Positions 53,399 through 63,759 of a DNA stretch of 64,000 nucleotides are shown here, piece after piece; position 1 is the stretch's first letter; the number at the start of each line of letters is the position of its first letter. The notes beneath the pieces are model-generated. The model searched no databases. It saw nothing but the letters and a program-made list of their open reading frames with translations, and was not told where the DNA came from. This DNA is from Salegentibacter salarius (lineage in GTDB: Bacteria; Bacteroidota; Bacteroidia; Flavobacteriales; Flavobacteriaceae): contig NZ_FVZF01000004.1 of NCBI RefSeq assembly GCF_900168265.1, positions 62,001 to 126,000 of the forward strand, in the 5' to 3' direction. Both the position numbers and the translations under genes were made by a program.

Positions 53399-54542
53399 TC
53401 ACAAGTCAAATCCAAAATCCTCTTCCTCTAATTCCTCTGCTTTTGCAAGGTCTTGAATAAATTCGTCAATTTGGTTTTTAGTAACATTAGGCATACAGAT
53501 AATATGTGACACCTCACCCTCGGTAGCCAATTGCCATTTTTGCTTTACCGCATCAGGCGTTCTTGGCATCACAACGGTTAGCGACCCCGGATTGCTCCAT
53601 GCTTCCACTCCTATTTCTTTAAGCTGATTTTTGCAATATTCCGCAACTTCAAGTCCGTGTAGGTAACGGGCTTTCATCCCTTCTTCCCCCAACTGCTTAA
53701 GGGCATACCAAAGAAACAAAGGACTATGTCCATATCGTCGTATCTAAAGAACCTATATAAGAAATACCTTTCGCAATACGATCTCTATGACCTCTTTTGG
53801 TGATGATTACTCCGCAAGGAATAGGTGAACCTACGAATTTATGGCCGCTAATAGATATACTATCTGCGCCATCTTTAAAATCAAAAGGCACTCTTGGCTC
53901 CATAAAAGCGCCATAACTTCCGGAAAGGGCCGCATCACAATGAATGTAGTGATCTTGTACCGCAAGATTTCTTAGAATACCTTTTATTCGAGAAACATCA
54001 TCTTTAGCCTCTTTCATCGTGGTTCCAAAAGTGGTAAGCACTATAGCAGGTTTATGCCGATTCATTCTCAAGGTATTCTCAAAATCTTCATAATCTATCT
54101 CCCCATTCTCCTGCGACCTTATCACAATACTCGGAATATTTAGCAGATGAATATTCTTGCGCACACTGTAATGAGTAGATTCTGAATAATACACCATTGC
54201 CTTAGGATACATTTCCCGGGCCAGGTAAAGACCATACAAGTTACTTTCAGATCCTCCATTGGTAACATAACCCCAATAGTCTTTTGGGTGAGCTCGAAAA
54301 AGTTTGGCAAAGAAAGCCACTACTTCCTTCTCCATTTCGTGTGTTTGCACTTTCCAGGTTCCCTCTTCAAAAGGATCGCCAAGGTTATTAATTGGATATT
54401 GTAAAAATGGGGTAAGCTCAGAATAATCGAAGTCTTTAGAAACCGGATATCCAAGGAAAGTGTCTCTCGATTTCCCTAAGCTTTCCTTTAAATTTTCTAA
54501 TCTTTCTCTGTCTTTTTCTGCTAAATTTCGCTTGGTCACCAC
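53399..54542 (-). pseudogene. hdc: PLP histidine decarboxylase broken by a short deletion
   Basis: Group II PLP decarboxylase: YVTNGGSESNLYGLYLARE, FGTTMKEAKDD, CDAALSGSYGAF and the Schiff-base lysine in SISGHKFVGSPIPCGV all match histidine decarboxylases. After GSLDTTI the frame runs into TAG (53724-53726). The expected motif SGSRNGHSPLFLWYA is present only from GHSPLFLWYA onward in another frame: the codons for SGSRN are reduced to a single T, which I infer to be a 14-nt deletion near 53731. The C-terminal part continues normally to GFDL. The gene cannot make a normal enzyme. Confidence 0.85.
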
Positions 54543-54663: not shown

Positions 54664-54732
54664 TAAAAACAAAAAAGCCTTGAAAATCAAAGGATTAACA
54701 AGGCTTTAAGTACTCGGGACGGGACTTTAACC
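54664..54732. repeat. Left attachment-site repeat (attL)
   Basis: Matches 63628-63696 at 67 of 69 positions; differences at 54692 (G versus T) and 54728 (T versus G). It carries a copy of the tRNA terminator hairpin (AAGCCTTG...CAAGGCTT) and the last 22 nt of tRNA-Leu, but no further tRNA sequence, so it is not a tRNA gene. Confidence 0.85.
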
Positions 54733-54904
54733 TAAATATATTCAAGCGATCTTATTCCACTACAATATTCATAATAAACTGATTTACAGTATATAATATC
54801 TCATTCTATTTAAGGTTTCGTATTGCATTAGATTGTTATCGGTTGACTAAAGTTGTCGATTGGTTGACTAGAAGTTGACTAAGCTATATATTTGCTAATC
54901 AAAA
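54733..54904. promoter_or_regulatory. Integrase control region with GTTGACTA octamers and promoter
   Basis: GTTGACTA occurs at 54842-54849, 54863-54870 and 54874-54881; the last two are 11 bp apart, matched by a pair with the same spacing at the right end. They are candidate arm-type integrase sites. A promoter overlaps them: TTG 54864-54866, 20-bp spacer, TATATTTG 54887-54894 (perfect TAnnTTTG), 19 bp before the integrase ATG at 54914. Bound integrase could therefore repress its own gene. The rest of the region is AT-rich with nothing recognised. Confidence 0.6.
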
Positions 54905-54913
54905 TTGATTATT

Positions 54914-56242
54914 ATGGCATCACTCAAATTTCAAATCCAAAGCAAATCTACCTCAGCACCAATTTACGCTAGACTATCTTTAGGAAGAAAACAAGTTTTC
55001 AAGCGTAAAACAGGACTTTTTATTAGCGCTAAAGATTGGAGTAAGTCAACCGGGTTTCCAAAAGCAAAAGACAAACAAGGAAAAGAATTAAAGAACCAAC
55101 TAAAACAATTAGAGGCTTTTCTTCTAGAAAAGATTACAAAAGATAGCGCAAAGGGTATTGAAATAAATAGTGATTGGGTTTTTCACAATATTAATCTTCA
55201 TTTTAAAAGGGTTTCTGATAACGAGGGAAAATCTGAGTTACTTATTGATGCGGTACAAGAATTTATTGATTCAGCTCCTTTACGAAGCAATTCGAAGGGT
55301 GGCACCGGGCTTTCAGATAGCCGAATAAAAGCTATAAAACGTTTTAAGAGCATACTACAGGAATTTCTAGGAAAAAGAAAATGCAAGGTCTCCGAGGTAG
55401 ATCTCAACTTCGCGAGAGAATTTTCAACCTGGCTGCATAATAAAAAGCAATTTTCCAAAAGCTATACCCTCAAAACAATTGACAACTTAAAAACGATTTG
55501 TAATGATGCTGAGGTAAACGGAATTAACGTAAACCCTCAATTAAAAAACGTAAAAGGTGGCAAGGTGAAAAGCGAAACCATCCTCTACTTATCAAAAACA
55601 GAACTTAAAAAGATTAAAGAAGTTGATCTTAAATCAAAAGCTTTGATGAACGCTCGAAAGTGGTTGATACTAGGCTGTAATATAGGGCAACGCGGTAGTG
55701 ATCTTCTAAACCTTAATGAAAGTAATTTAGGTTCTAAGGGCGATATAGTCCTAATCGAATTGACTCAGCAAAAAACCGGGAAACATGTTTACATCCCTTT
55801 AAATAGAGATGCAAAAGAAGTTATCCAAGACGGCTTCCCTACCAAAATTTCAATGCAAAAATTTAATGACTATATAAAGCTTATTGGTAAAGAAGCTGAA
55901 ATAAATGAAAAAGTTATAGCAGGAAAGGTTTCCATGGTTCCCGAATCAAAAAATTCGGATGTTAAGATTAAAAGAAAAGTTATTAAGGAATACGAAAAAT
56001 GGGAAGTGATGGCATCCCATATTTGCAGAAGATCCTTCGCTACAAATTTATATGGCGAATTACCTGCATCATTGATAATGAGTATTACTGGACATAGTAC
56101 TGAGAAAATGTTTTTAAATTATATTGGCAAGACCTCGGTTGACCATATAGCCTCAATTAATGCTTTTTATAACAAACAAGACAAGGAACAGAACAAGGAA
56201 ATAAAACTTCAAGTTATATCCAACAAGGCTGCCAATGGATAA
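54914..56242 (+). CDS. int: Tyrosine recombinase/integrase
   Basis: 442 aa from ATG 54914 (TTG 54905 is an alternative). The Bacteroidota-type integrase layout is an arm-binding N-terminal domain (about 1-100, SLKFQIQSKSTSAPIYARL), a SAM-like core-binding domain (about 110-205) and the catalytic domain. Catalytic residues: Arg in NIGQRGSDLL (about 258), HICRRSFATNLYG with the H-x-x-R pair (about 368-371), GHSTEKMFLNYIG with the second His and nucleophilic Tyr (about 402). It should catalyse integration and excision between the two att repeats. Confidence 0.94.
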   Translation: MASLKFQIQSKSTSAPIYARLSLGRKQVFKRKTGLFISAKDWSKSTGFPKAKDKQGKELKNQLKQLEAFLLEKITKDSAKGIEINSDWVFHNINLHFKRVSDNEGKSELLIDAVQEFIDSAPLRSNSKGGTGLSDSRIKAIKRFKSILQEFLGKRKCKVSEVDLNFAREFSTWLHNKKQFSKSYTLKTIDNLKTICNDAEVNGINVNPQLKNVKGGKVKSETILYLSKTELKKIKEVDLKSKALMNARKWLILGCNIGQRGSDLLNLNESNLGSKGDIVLIELTQQKTGKHVYIPLNRDAKEVIQDGFPTKISMQKFNDYIKLIGKEAEINEKVIAGKVSMVPESKNSDVKIKRKVIKEYEKWEVMASHICRRSFATNLYGELPASLIMSITGHSTEKMFLNYIGKTSVDHIASINAFYNKQDKEQNKEIKLQVISNKAANG

Positions 56243-56254
56243 TTAACGAGTTAT

Positions 56255-56752
56255 ATGAATCTTAAGGACTACCTCATACAATACACTCAAGAACCTGACA
56301 GAAATTTTCGAAATTTTCCTAAGGAAAAAACCGAGAAATTATTTCTGGAATTCAAGTCTCTATGTTATAATCCGCAAACTTATAAATGGAGTAGAATTAA
56401 AGATTGTACCGCCTATATCAAAAGCGAAAACATTGACCCTGAAATTTTCATTCGATTCTCTCACTACCTCATCAATCGGTATTATAAACTAGTTCATGTG
56501 CATAATAGCAAAGGAAAGAACGCCGCATTCACATTCCTGAAAAAGCTTCAAGCATCTAAAAAATTAACTTCTAGAAATGGCAAGAAAATAAAACTATCTG
56601 AAGGAGTAAATAAGATTGACTTTTTGCTTGAAATGAAAACTCTAAATAAATTTCTAGATCTCACTAATGAGGAATGGGTGGATTTTATACTTTCAAATTT
56701 TGAATTAAACCTTTCAAAAGCAACACTCCTCAAATATTATTACACAAAATAG
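56255..56752 (+). CDS. Unknown 165-aa protein of the element
   Basis: 165 aa starting 12 bp after the integrase stop, so probably cotranscribed with it. It is rich in Lys, Tyr, Phe and Asn and mostly helical by eye (EKTEKLFLEFKSLCYNPQTYK; DPEIFIRFSHYLINRYYKL; FLLEMKTLNKFLDLTNEEW). No catalytic motif, signal or membrane helix is visible, and I do not recognise the family. Small basic helical proteins beside integrases are often recombination-directionality or regulatory factors, but that is only a contextual guess. Confidence 0.7.
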   Translation: MNLKDYLIQYTQEPDRNFRNFPKEKTEKLFLEFKSLCYNPQTYKWSRIKDCTAYIKSENIDPEIFIRFSHYLINRYYKLVHVHNSKGKNAAFTFLKKLQASKKLTSRNGKKIKLSEGVNKIDFLLEMKTLNKFLDLTNEEWVDFILSNFELNLSKATLLKYYYTK

Positions 56753-56794
56753 TTGAATTTTTTCACGAAATTTTCTTCAGAAAAAAGCAAAAAT

Positions 56795-56850
56795 AGGTTA
56801 ACCTAATATAACCTGATATAACCTAAATAAGCCTAAATCAACCTTACACC
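56795..56850 (+). repeat. Phased 10-bp iterons upstream of excisionase and rep genes
   Basis: After a perfect palindrome AGGTTAACCT (56795-56804) come five consecutive 10-bp units starting at 56801: ACCTAATATA, ACCTGATATA, ACCTAAATAA, GCCTAAATCA, ACCTTACACC. The CCT core repeats exactly every 10 bp, about one helical turn, placing all units on one DNA face. This fits cooperative binding by the excisionase-like or replication protein, or a replication origin. Confidence 0.7.
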
Positions 56851-57002
56851 ATCATTCAGCTCCTTGTTATACGCCTAGATCAACGTAAATAAGTTTCTAT
56901 CCACCTCTACACTTCACTTTAGCTTTGGCGTTCAAATAGGAGAAAGACTCCTATCAACGTTAAAAATGAGATCTAGCTCAAATAGATCTAAATATTCTTT
57001 TT

Positions 57003-57275
57003 ATGAAAAAAGTTCAATTAGTAGAAATTACTCCCGAACAATTTCAAAAAATGCTAGCAGTAGAAATAGCCGAAAAGATAGAGGAACTAAAAGAAGTACT
57101 AAAGCCTGTGGAAAAGACAGAATACCTTACAAGAACCGAAGTAAGTGAGCTTTTGAAAATTAATTTATCCACTGTCCACAAATGGACAAAACAAAACTAT
57201 CTCCATGCCTACTATTTAGGCAACCGCGTATATTATAAACGGAGTGAAATTGAAAACACTCTTTGTAGTGTTTAA
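57003..57275 (+). CDS. Excisionase-family helix-turn-helix protein
   Basis: 90 aa. Residues 1-38 are a coiled-coil-like helix (EQFQKMLAVEIAEKIEELKEVLK), residues 40-88 a MerR/Xis-type winged helix: YLTRTEVSELLKINLSTVHKWTKQNYL with wing residues YYLGNRVYYKRSEIENTL. This is the HTH_17 excisionase architecture common on Bacteroidota mobile elements. It lies ~150 bp downstream of the phased 10-bp repeats and upstream of the replication-like gene. Probable role: architectural factor for excision or regulator of rep. Confidence 0.85.
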   Translation: MKKVQLVEITPEQFQKMLAVEIAEKIEELKEVLKPVEKTEYLTRTEVSELLKINLSTVHKWTKQNYLHAYYLGNRVYYKRSEIENTLCSV

Positions 57276-57323: not shown

Positions 57324-58220
57324 TTGGTTGACTACACCAAATTTGAACTTCCCTCATATTTTGAGAAAATCCTCAAAGAAAATAGCCTCCTTGAATTTCA
57401 AGCGAAGGTTGATTTGAATGGCGGTTTAATTGGTGATCGTTCAATCGCCTATTATAGAGGTTTAACTTTCACGATTTATGAGTCTAAACGAATTACAGTA
57501 GCCGGTAGCTTGCATAAATATTGGAACAAAGGAAAACATAATTTCAATGACTTCAGTACAGAAAACCTATTGGAAGTTTTAAATGATCTCAAGAATAAGT
57601 TTAAAATTACTCCTGATGTTTGCGATATAAAACAACTAGAAATTGGAATAAACTTTCGACCTCCCTATACAACAAAAGAAATCTTAGCCTCTTGTCTCCT
57701 TCATAAAACCTCACAACTTAAATGGATTTTCACTCCTGATGAGGGAAACTATAAGCAGGTTATGCACAGGAATTACTATATTAAAGTATACGACAAACAA
57801 AAGCATTATACTCAACAAGGCTACAAAATTCCTTCTGAGCTGATGAGGTTCGAAATAAAGTATAGACGTAACAAGTTAAATAATCAACTCGGCATAACTG
57901 GTAAAATAATCCTTCAAGATATTCTTGATTATAACTTTAAATATTTTACAGACGCATTAATTAAAGAGTGGAGAAATATTCTTTTTTACGACTGGACTTC
58001 TTTAGAAAATAGCTCCTATAAGGATCGTTATAGTAATGACGAGTATTGGCTCAATCTCAAGCAAGAAAACTTCAAATATCATCGTAATAAGCTCAATAAA
58101 ATTATATCCGCGAACCCCAACAACCTTAAGAAGGATATTGAAGCAAGAATAGAAGCTAAATGCAAGCTTCTAACAGCTCCGACTACCCGAATTAGCACTT
58201 TATATATAGAGACAGTTTAG
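57324..58220 (+). CDS. Replication-initiator-like protein (phage gpII/X or Rep_trans type)
   Basis: 298 aa with a TTG start. The arrangement IKVYDKQKHYTQ, then ELMRFEIKYRRNKL, is the pattern of filamentous-phage gpII/X replication proteins and rolling-circle Rep_trans initiators, as is the N-terminal strand-rich region with GLTFTIYESKRITVAGSLHKYW. I could not place the nicking tyrosine with certainty. If correct, the excised element could replicate as a circle. Nested inverted repeats cover its stop codon. The family call is tentative. Confidence 0.5.
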   Translation: MVDYTKFELPSYFEKILKENSLLEFQAKVDLNGGLIGDRSIAYYRGLTFTIYESKRITVAGSLHKYWNKGKHNFNDFSTENLLEVLNDLKNKFKITPDVCDIKQLEIGINFRPPYTTKEILASCLLHKTSQLKWIFTPDEGNYKQVMHRNYYIKVYDKQKHYTQQGYKIPSELMRFEIKYRRNKLNNQLGITGKIILQDILDYNFKYFTDALIKEWRNILFYDWTSLENSSYKDRYSNDEYWLNLKQENFKYHRNKLNKIISANPNNLKKDIEARIEAKCKLLTAPTTRISTLYIETV

Positions 58221-63597: not shown

Positions 63598-63616
63598 GTT
63601 GACTAAAAGTTGACTA
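63598..63616 (+). promoter_or_regulatory. Right-end GTTGACTA pair (candidate integrase arm sites)
   Basis: GTTGACTA at 63598-63605 and 63609-63616, 11 bp apart, the same octamer and spacing as 54863/54874 at the left end, in the same orientation. Only 12 bp from the right att repeat. Confidence 0.6.
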
Positions 63617-63627
63617 AAACAACTTCC

Positions 63628-63696
63628 TAAAAACAAAAAAGCCTTGAAAATCAAATGATTAACAAGGCTTTAAGTACTCGGGACGGGACTTGAACC
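63628..63696. repeat. Right attachment-site repeat (attR) overlapping tRNA-Leu
   Basis: Partner of 54664-54732. It covers the tRNA terminator hairpin (AAGCCTTG / CAAGGCTT, 63640-63671) and 22 nt of the tRNA T-arm/acceptor, so the tRNA stays intact at this end. Confidence 0.85.
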
Positions 63697-63759
63697 CGTA
63701 CGGACACATTGTCCATTGGATTTTAAGTCCAACGTGTCTACCAATTCCACCACCCGAGC
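63675..63759 (-). tRNA. tRNA-Leu (anticodon TAA)
   Basis: 85 nt. Minus strand begins GCTCGGGTGGTGGAAT, with acceptor stem GCTCGGG paired to CCCGAGT (G-U at the end) and discriminator A. The anticodon loop reads CTTAAAA with anticodon TAA; a long variable arm and GGTTCAA T-loop identify a class II leucine tRNA. CCA is not encoded. It is the integration target of the element. Confidence 0.95.

What the first reader, a model, noticed from the sequence alone, without database searches (positions are those of the whole stretch)
56795..56850. Five 10-bp-phased iterons next to a perfect palindrome
CCT cores recur exactly every 10 bp following AGGTTAACCT, in the 250-bp gap before the excisionase-like gene. 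Exact helical phasing is unusual for chance AT-rich DNA and suggests an origin, an excision nucleoprotein site or an autoregulatory operator.
Basis: partly seen in the sequence, partly recalled or inferred. Interest (0 to 1): 0.55.

Follow-up and report, generated by a model that had tools for sequence, protein, structure and literature searches.

The report
Helically phased operator-like repeats in genomic island
A short stretch of DNA in a mobile genomic island carries five copies of a small motif spaced exactly one DNA turn apart; comparison with related islands suggests that it is a docking array for the island's own control protein, which may govern when the island leaves the chromosome and copies itself.

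Summary
Five CCT cores lie at 56802, 56812, 56822, 56832 and 56842, and AGGTTAACCT at 56795-56804, in a gap of exactly 250 bp. It is the best tandem repeat of the window by Tandem Repeats Finder, and 0 of 2000 shuffles of the gap give five CCT at 10 bp.

It lies inside a 9.0-kb element integrated at tRNA-Leu: integrase, orf165, array, HTH_17 (excisionase-like), rep-like gene, MmeI-type restriction gene. It is 2.1 kb from the nearest att copy, so it is no att-core complex.

The main result is comparative. In 94 relatives, DNA upstream of the HTH_17 gene is strongly enriched for direct repeats 11 (10-12) bp apart. The motif differs between elements and follows the C-terminal domain of the upstream gene, not HTH_17: among pairs with HTH_17 at least 60% identical, it is shared in 10 of 11 if that domain is related and in 4 of 33 if not. 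DNA after RteC genes shows the same 11-bp peak, from 9 of 30 loci.

Best reading: an operator for the regulator encoded just upstream (orf165), controlling the HTH_17-rep operon. For the window itself this is inference: orf165 is an orphan, not recognisably RteC, and the array is 10-bp, five-copy and farther from the promoter.

The parts
54664..54727 (+). left copy of the att direct repeat (64 bp, one mismatch to the right copy)
54842..54881 (+). three GTTGACTA repeats (54842, 54863, 54874), arm-type-like sites near attL
   Evidence: the role as integrase arm sites is inferred
54905..56242 (+). tyrosine recombinase (integrase), 445 aa
   Evidence: Pfam Phage_integrase 2.6e-11, Phage_int_SAM_5 1.1e-9
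56255..56752 (+). orf165, the proposed regulator that binds the array; orphan, all-helical in a single-sequence model, C-terminal helices 138-148 and 155-164
   Evidence: no match in Pfam, NCBIfam or PHROGs; distant relatives L036 and L039 by tblastn, L037 by position and alignment; model pLDDT 73.6
56795..56804 (+). perfect palindrome AGGTTAACCT: inverted copy plus first direct copy
56799..56844 (+). array of five 10-bp repeats (CCT at 56802, 56812, 56822, 56832, 56842)
56920..56927 (+). TAGCTTTG, an exact TANNTTTG box (Bacteroidota -7 consensus, recalled), candidate promoter of the HTH_17-rep operon
   Evidence: in relatives boxes with at least 5 of 6 matches peak at -40..-21 of the HTH start
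57003..57275 (+). HTH_17 / excisionase-like protein, 90 aa
   Evidence: Pfam HTH_17 1.1e-9; TIGR01764 excise 2.7e-6, 27.7 bits, just below its cut-off 28.8
57324..58220 (+). rep-like protein, 298 aa, TTG start; no known family
   Evidence: homologues in 23 of 299 genomes of the family, the query genome included; distant homologue on the 6,969-bp plasmid pHsw3
58766..61489 (+). MmeI-type (type IIL) restriction-modification protein, cargo
   Evidence: five MmeI Pfam domains
63598..63616 (+). two GTTGACTA repeats (63598, 63609), arm-type-like sites near attR
   Evidence: role inferred
63628..63691 (+). right copy of the att direct repeat, overlapping the 3' end of tRNA-Leu(taa) 63674-63759 on the minus strand

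Best explanation
The array is an operator: a row of half-sites on one face of the helix plus one inverted half-site. It is read by a sequence-specific regulator that the element encodes immediately upstream (orf165) and controls the promoter of the downstream HTH_17 (excisionase-like) and rep-like operon, and so the switch from quiescent island to excised, replicating form. Shown: the array and its significance; the element and its gene order; the enrichment of one-turn-phased repeats at this position in relatives; the segregation of motif with the upstream gene's C-terminal domain in relatives. Inferred: that orf165 is this element's version of that upstream regulator, that it binds the array, and whether it activates (RteC is required for CTnDOT excision gene expression) or represses.
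For: In 94 relatives, exact 5-mers with at least two G/C recur at 11 bp 74 times against 6.4 in shuffles (z 20.8); lags 10, 12 and 20-22 are also raised, and DNA 530-700 bp upstream has 8 at lag 11 (91 loci). One locus per HTH cluster (53 loci): 37 at lag 11 against 2.8 at background lags. With an upstream-ORF-to-HTH gap of 40-160 bp, 30 of 51 relatives have lag 10-12 repeats at p<=0.05; of the 31 relatives with significant repeats 19 have an inverted copy within 35 bp, 8.0 expected with shuffled flanks. The motif follows the C-terminal 95 residues of the upstream ORF: among pairs with HTH at least 60% identical it is shared in 10 of 11 if related and 4 of 33 if not; with HTH below 60%, 12 of 51 against 93 of 1276. 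Natural swap: L083 and L091 share HTH (94%) and 209 of 252 aligned residues of the upstream ORF's first part but 20 of 96 of its last part, and their operators differ. Over seven loci in two classes, operator segments are 0.78 and 0.85 identical within and 0.62 between classes, while the HTH-proximal 40 bp do not segregate (0.64 and 0.80 within, 0.70 between). 6 of 54 upstream ORFs match Pfam RteC. DNA after 30 RteC-matching loci of Bacteroidota has 28 repeated 5-mers at lag 11 against 2.5 in shuffles (at most 10 in 100), no other lag from 4 to 40 above 9; 9 of 30 loci contribute. RteC controls CTnDOT excision and transfer genes (PMC1976400, passages). In the window, orf165 occupies the same slot and the palindrome starts 42 bp after its stop codon.
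Against: orf165 is not detectably homologous to the four groups of relatives' regulators tested (hhalign probability 0.3% or less) and has no Pfam match at E<=10. Its distant relatives L036, L037 and L039 show no array (L039 has one TAGTTG pair 10 bp apart). With long gaps (160-345 bp), as in the window, 1 of 9 relatives has significant repeats. The array is 10-bp (relatives mostly 11), five-copy, and ends 76 bp upstream of the candidate -7 box, whereas relatives' repeats lie close to theirs. The two operator classes in the swap still share part of their sequence, GAGTACCTT in L083, L089 and all four of the other class. Pairs are not independent (the 10 of 11 come from three clusters), and 39 of 51 related-regulator pairs with divergent HTH share no repeated 5-mer. 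21 of 30 RteC loci contribute nothing at lag 11. AACCT-N5 arrays occur elsewhere as plain tandem repeats.
Confidence: 0.5

Rival explanations
1. The HTH_17 protein itself oligomerises head-to-tail on the array, one protomer per turn, as BldC and RdfS do, to autoregulate or to shape DNA.
For: The gene next to the array is HTH_17. BldC binds directional 9-bp direct repeats head-to-tail (PMC5859096, passages), with one turn per protomer on a longer site, and RdfS one molecule per 10 bp (PMC11963761, passages). In three of the closer HTH relatives with a rep neighbour (L018, L020, L024; HTH 48-49% identical) the motif CCCTA/CCTAA resembles AACCTAA.
Against: In relatives the motif does not follow HTH_17: closely related HTH with different motif in two classes, 4 of 33 sharing when the upstream domain is unrelated. 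L018 and L020 also have related upstream ORFs, so they do not tell the two readings apart. The BldC model scores 19.9 bits against a cut-off of 77.
Confidence: 0.2
2. The array is neutral or of host-wide origin: a degenerate 10-bp tandem repeat that arose by slippage, without a dedicated binder.
For: orf165 relatives lack an array.
Against: The array is unique in its genome without mismatch, its spacers are degenerate while cores and phase are kept, and it lies where relatives are enriched for phased repeats.
Confidence: 0.17
3. The array is the replication or transfer origin bound by the rep-like protein.
For: A rep-like gene follows on the same strand; a distant homologue (22.8% identity) is the likeliest replication gene of a 6,969-bp plasmid with four annotated genes.
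Against: The rep-like protein matches no known replication family and its model failed (pLDDT 34.7). The closest rep relatives (L003, L004, L005) carry no AACCT array. 10-bp units are shorter than usual plasmid iterons (recalled).
Confidence: 0.1
4. The array is a binding site in the excision complex at att.
For: An AACCT copy (TAACCTAAATA) abuts the left att repeat at 54728.
Against: The array is 2.1 kb from attL and 6.8 kb from attR, which carry their own GTTGACTA repeats; a single AACCT copy is weak evidence.
Confidence: 0.03

Closest known systems
RteC-controlled excision operon of Bacteroides CTnDOT-type elements
   Same: A regulator gene of the element controls excision and transfer genes (PMC1976400, passages). 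DNA after RteC genes of Bacteroidota is enriched for 11-bp-phased repeats (9 of 30 loci contribute), and 6 of 54 upstream ORFs here match RteC.
   Different: orf165 is not recognisably RteC; the array has five copies at 10 bp; direction of control unknown. That RteC binds half-sites in the CTnDOT promoter is recalled; I found no held paper on it.
BldC of Streptomyces and the RdfS/Xis group (HTH_17 proteins)
   Same: HTH_17-type proteins; BldC uses direct repeats with head-to-tail protomers about one turn apart, RdfS one molecule per 10 bp (PMC5859096 and PMC11963761, passages).
   Different: In relatives of this element the motif follows another gene, not HTH_17.
Iteron origins of plasmids
   Same: Tandem direct repeats near a rep-like gene.
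   Different: Unit of 10 bp, rep-like protein of no known family, no test of replication.

Membership tests
RteC regulator and operator (PF09357) | regulator matches the RteC profile | tested here: not met
   orf165: 0 families at E<=10; hhalign to alignment A6, which holds RteC-type ORFs, probability 0.3%
RteC regulator and operator (PF09357) | regulator gene lies between integrase and excisionase-like gene, phased repeats after its stop | tested here: met
RteC regulator and operator (PF09357) | regulator binds the repeats and controls the excision operon | not testable with these tools
   needs binding and expression assays
BldC family | BldC-family protein by curated cut-off | tested here: not met
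   HTH_17 protein: NF033787 19.9 bits, cut-off 77
BldC family | direct repeats about one turn apart | tested here: met
   period 10, five cores
BldC family | in relatives the repeat motif follows the HTH_17 protein | tested here: not met
   4 of 33 pairs with HTH at least 60% identical and unrelated upstream domain share a motif 5-mer
att/excision complex of a tyrosine recombinase | repeats lie within the att arms | tested here: not met
   array 2.1 and 6.8 kb from the att copies
plasmid iteron origin | neighbouring replication initiator of a known family | tested here: inconclusive
   no replication family matched; distant homologue on a small plasmid
plasmid iteron origin | the segment supports autonomous replication | not testable with these tools
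   needs a plasmid test

The most novel reading that the evidence does not exclude
Integrative elements of Bacteroidota share an exchangeable control cassette, the C-terminal DNA-binding domain of a regulator plus a helically phased operator right behind its gene. It is swapped between elements as a unit while neighbouring genes stay, giving many regulatory specificities on one mobile backbone. The window's element carries an unrelated, orphan version of the cassette (orf165 plus a five-copy, 10-bp array).
Probability: 0.45. Interest if true: 0.62.

Novelty: new variant of a known kind. Interest (0 to 1): 0.45.

Why it matters
If right, it gives a sequence signature (repeats at 10-12 bp between a regulator gene and an HTH_17 gene) by which operator, regulator and controlled operon of integrative elements in Bacteroidota can be read directly. 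48 of the 54 upstream ORFs scanned here match no RteC model, so most of these regulators now have no name. It also predicts which elements would cross-regulate each other. The cassette swap between L083 and L091 makes the pairing of domain and operator testable with two chimeras.

Tried and rejected
Excision-complex reading: rejected by distance to att. HTH_17 as the binder: my first working model; demoted when closely related HTH proteins were found with different motifs.

Close relatives of orf165: none by pattern and tblastn in genome contigs; own copy plus 9 weak matches (E 0.003-0.01) in 397 genomes. Viral contigs with the rep-like protein: 2 pattern hits, no relative. Sister islands: L257, L260, L261 differ from each other at 4 of the 291 compared columns and carry another motif, so they say nothing about the window's array; in L270 other mobile-looking genes (my reading of the ORFs) follow the integrase.

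Structure: orf165 single-sequence model pLDDT 73.6, all helical; Foldseek best E 1.0, VIA-align best Z 5.2, uninformative. Rep-like model pLDDT 34.7, not searched. PDB sequence searches with HTH, rep and the rep alignment: none. Profile comparisons of orf165 with other upstream ORFs: none. A5 versus A6: none; A7 versus A5: weak (31%). Members of the rep alignment gave only scattered weak matches, such as phrog_1271 HNH endonuclease in 2 of 12.

Rows dropped: of 107 HTH loci 96 were kept after removing repeats of the same first 60 residues; L001 and L002, extra copies of the window, were left out beforehand. From the listing I held the 30 automatic loci and fetched 60 further ones by rank, leaving out those already held and everything weaker. 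Upstream ORFs outside the gap and length limits were excluded. In one search the control lags had 40 shuffles a locus and the tested lags 100. In one search two of 30 RteC loci were left out and one (L277) was read on the wrong strand; one search repeats it with all 30 on the listed strands, and the report uses that.

Full report
Observation. CCT cores stand at 56802, 56812, 56822, 56832 and 56842, the palindrome AGGTTAACCT at 56795-56804, in a gap of exactly 250 bp, 56753-57002. Five CCT at period 10 occurred in 0 of 2000 shuffles of the gap; any trimer at any period from 7 to 30 gave a run of five in 6 of 2000. A lag-match score of 17.6 was reached in 0 of 1000 shuffles of the gap, though three lag/stretch combinations elsewhere in the window (38.9-39.3 kb) score higher and one the same. 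The pattern occurs once in the window and in 0 of 100 shuffles of it. Tandem Repeats Finder ranks the array first of its 31 rows. In the assembled genome the AACCT triplet at 10-bp spacing occurs without mismatch only here. The palindrome by itself is ordinary: there are 93 ten-bp palindromes in the window.

Surroundings. The array lies in an integrated element. A 64-bp direct repeat with one mismatch stands at 54664-54727 and 63628-63691; the right copy overlaps tRNA-Leu(taa) at 63674-63759. Between them lie a tyrosine recombinase, orf165, the array, an HTH_17 / excisionase-like protein, a rep-like protein, an MmeI-type restriction-modification protein and three further genes, one of them with a DUF4325 domain. 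GTTGACTA repeats occur at both ends (54842, 54863, 54874; 63598, 63609), as integrase arm sites would (inference). The array is 2.1 kb from the left att copy, so it is not part of the att complex.

Relatives. The rep-like protein has homologues in 23 of 299 genomes of the bacterial family and HTH_17 in 145 of 397, the query genome included in both. I held 96 non-identical HTH loci, the window's included. In the 170 bp upstream of the HTH start of 94 relatives, exact 5-mers with at least two G or C recur at a distance of 11 bp 74 times against 6.4 in shuffles (z 20.8). Lags 10 and 12 (z 6.9, 7.9) and 20-22 (z 5.0, 4.1, 3.5) are raised; lags 9, 24, 32 and 39 reach z 3.0-3.9. A control stretch 530-700 bp upstream (91 loci) has 8 at lag 11. 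With one locus per HTH cluster at 60% identity (53 loci), lag 11 has 37 against a background of 2.8, and 27 of 53 loci contribute at lags 10-12 against 9 and 10 at two control ranges; of 26 intergenic stretches of the window outside the element 5 contribute. Per locus, 35 of 95 (window included) reach p<=0.05 for lags 10-12, against 5-9 for five control lag ranges and 15 for lags 20-22. Of 31 relatives with significant repeats in the gap behind the upstream ORF, 19 have an inverted copy of the repeated unit within 35 bp, against 8.0 expected with shuffled flanks. The sequence differs from element to element.

Which protein reads the repeats. My first model was HTH_17, by analogy with BldC and RdfS, whose papers I saw as passages. 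It did not survive comparison. Seven loci with closely related HTH proteins fall into two motif classes. L083 and L091 share 94% of HTH. Their upstream ORFs agree in 209 of 252 aligned residues up to residue 265 and in 20 of 96 after it, and the operators behind them differ. Across the two classes the operator segment is 0.78 and 0.85 identical within and 0.62 between, while the 40 bp next to HTH show no such segregation (0.64 and 0.80 within, 0.70 between). GAGTACCTT is common to L083, L089 and the other class, so the change is partial. Over 54 loci, pairs with HTH at least 60% identical share a repeated 5-mer in 10 of 11 cases when the C-terminal 95 residues of the upstream ORF are related and in 4 of 33 when not (Fisher 4e-6). 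With HTH below 60% the figures are 12 of 51 and 93 of 1276. These pairs are not independent: the 10 of 11 come from three clusters. An earlier, coarser test on whole upstream ORFs pointed the same way: 6 of 26 pairs with related ORF and HTH below 60%, 1 of 27 with HTH at least 60% and unrelated ORF, 100 of 1553 for neither; label permutation reached the first figure in 58 of 5000 and the second in 4292 of 5000.

RteC. Six of 54 upstream ORFs match Pfam RteC. In 198 genomes of the phylum 21 have an RteC match. The 160 bp after 30 of these loci hold 28 repeated 5-mers at lag 11, against 2.5 in shuffles (at most 10 in 100) and at most 9 at any other lag from 4 to 40; 9 of the 30 loci contribute, 21 do not. 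RteC controls excision and transfer genes of CTnDOT (PMC1976400, passages). An upstream regulator with a phased operator is therefore a recurrent arrangement, not a universal one.

How the window fits, and how it does not. orf165 stands in the regulator's place and the palindrome begins 42 bp after its stop. But orf165 is an orphan: no family, no close relative, no profile similarity to four groups of the other regulators. Its single-sequence model is helical with a possible C-terminal helix-turn-helix and has no structural match. Its three distant relatives (17-27% identical) have gaps of 306-335 bp without a visible array. The array has 10-bp spacing and five copies, and ends 76 bp before the TAGCTTTG box at 56920. 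In relatives, boxes with at least 5 of 6 matches peak 21-40 bp before the HTH start, and the repeats' centres have a median of 71.5 bp before that start. Among relatives with gaps of 160-345 bp 1 of 9 has significant repeats. A minus-strand TATTTTTG abuts the palindrome (5' end at 56795); its meaning is open.

Rivals. So slippage without function remains possible. An origin for the rep-like protein is not excluded; a distant homologue (22.8% identity) is one of four annotated genes on plasmid pHsw3, and the likeliest replication gene there.

Literature. Seven searches of the held library were made: BldC with direct repeats and MerR, excisionase with direct repeats and Bacteroides (29, no paper), RteC with CTnDOT (45), RteC with half-sites (48), integrative elements with RteC and operator (83), repressor with direct repeats and iterons (98), RteC/xis2c/xis2d (99). 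The rows listed (all 4, a part elsewhere) include, by title and abstract start, none that describes this operator arrangement. I found no held paper on RteC's own binding sites; subscription papers are largely missing from the library.

Verdict. Real feature. As a class, one-turn-phased repeats beside element regulators in this family are well supported by sequence statistics. For this array, an operator read by orf165 is the best single explanation at 0.5.

Noticed in passing
window 53399-54542: A PLP-dependent decarboxylase next to attL is split into two ORFs; a sister genome (L252) has one open frame of 397 codons there, so intact copies exist.
   Followed up: partly
window 54728-54738: TAACCTAAATA, identical to part of the array, directly abuts the left att repeat, in the region upstream of the integrase gene.
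   Followed up: partly
window 57326-57334: GGTTGACTA, the repeat found at both att ends, also overlaps the TTG start region of the rep-like gene.
   Followed up: no
window 56936-56954: ATAGGAG-N5-CTCCTAT, a 7-bp inverted repeat between the candidate promoter and the HTH_17 gene (read).
   Followed up: no
L036, L037, L039, L011 (gap before HTH_17): A similar stretch AAAAGGC ... GCCCTT recurs between the upstream ORF and HTH_17 in these four loci: a hairpin, terminator or other element of unknown role.
   Followed up: no
L257, L260, L261: Nearly identical islands with a different integrase (40% identical) begin at a sequence matching this att repeat in three other species of the genus.
   Followed up: partly
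L138, L195: Bacteroides timonensis and B. cellulosilyticus share a 10-bp-phased AACCTCACGG-type array between the same two neighbouring genes, with an inverted AGGTG at its start.
   Followed up: no
L136, L172, L217, L221: AACCT arrays with a 5-bp unit, (AACCT)n, in contigs of several phyla.
   Followed up: no
MT835707.1 5506-6024: An unannotated 28-kb phage record from human faeces encodes a distant homologue of the rep-like protein (28.4% identity, E 3e-10).
   Followed up: no
G000:C1:10102-10224: The window's own genome holds a short RteC-like fragment with a stop inside, on another contig.
   Followed up: no
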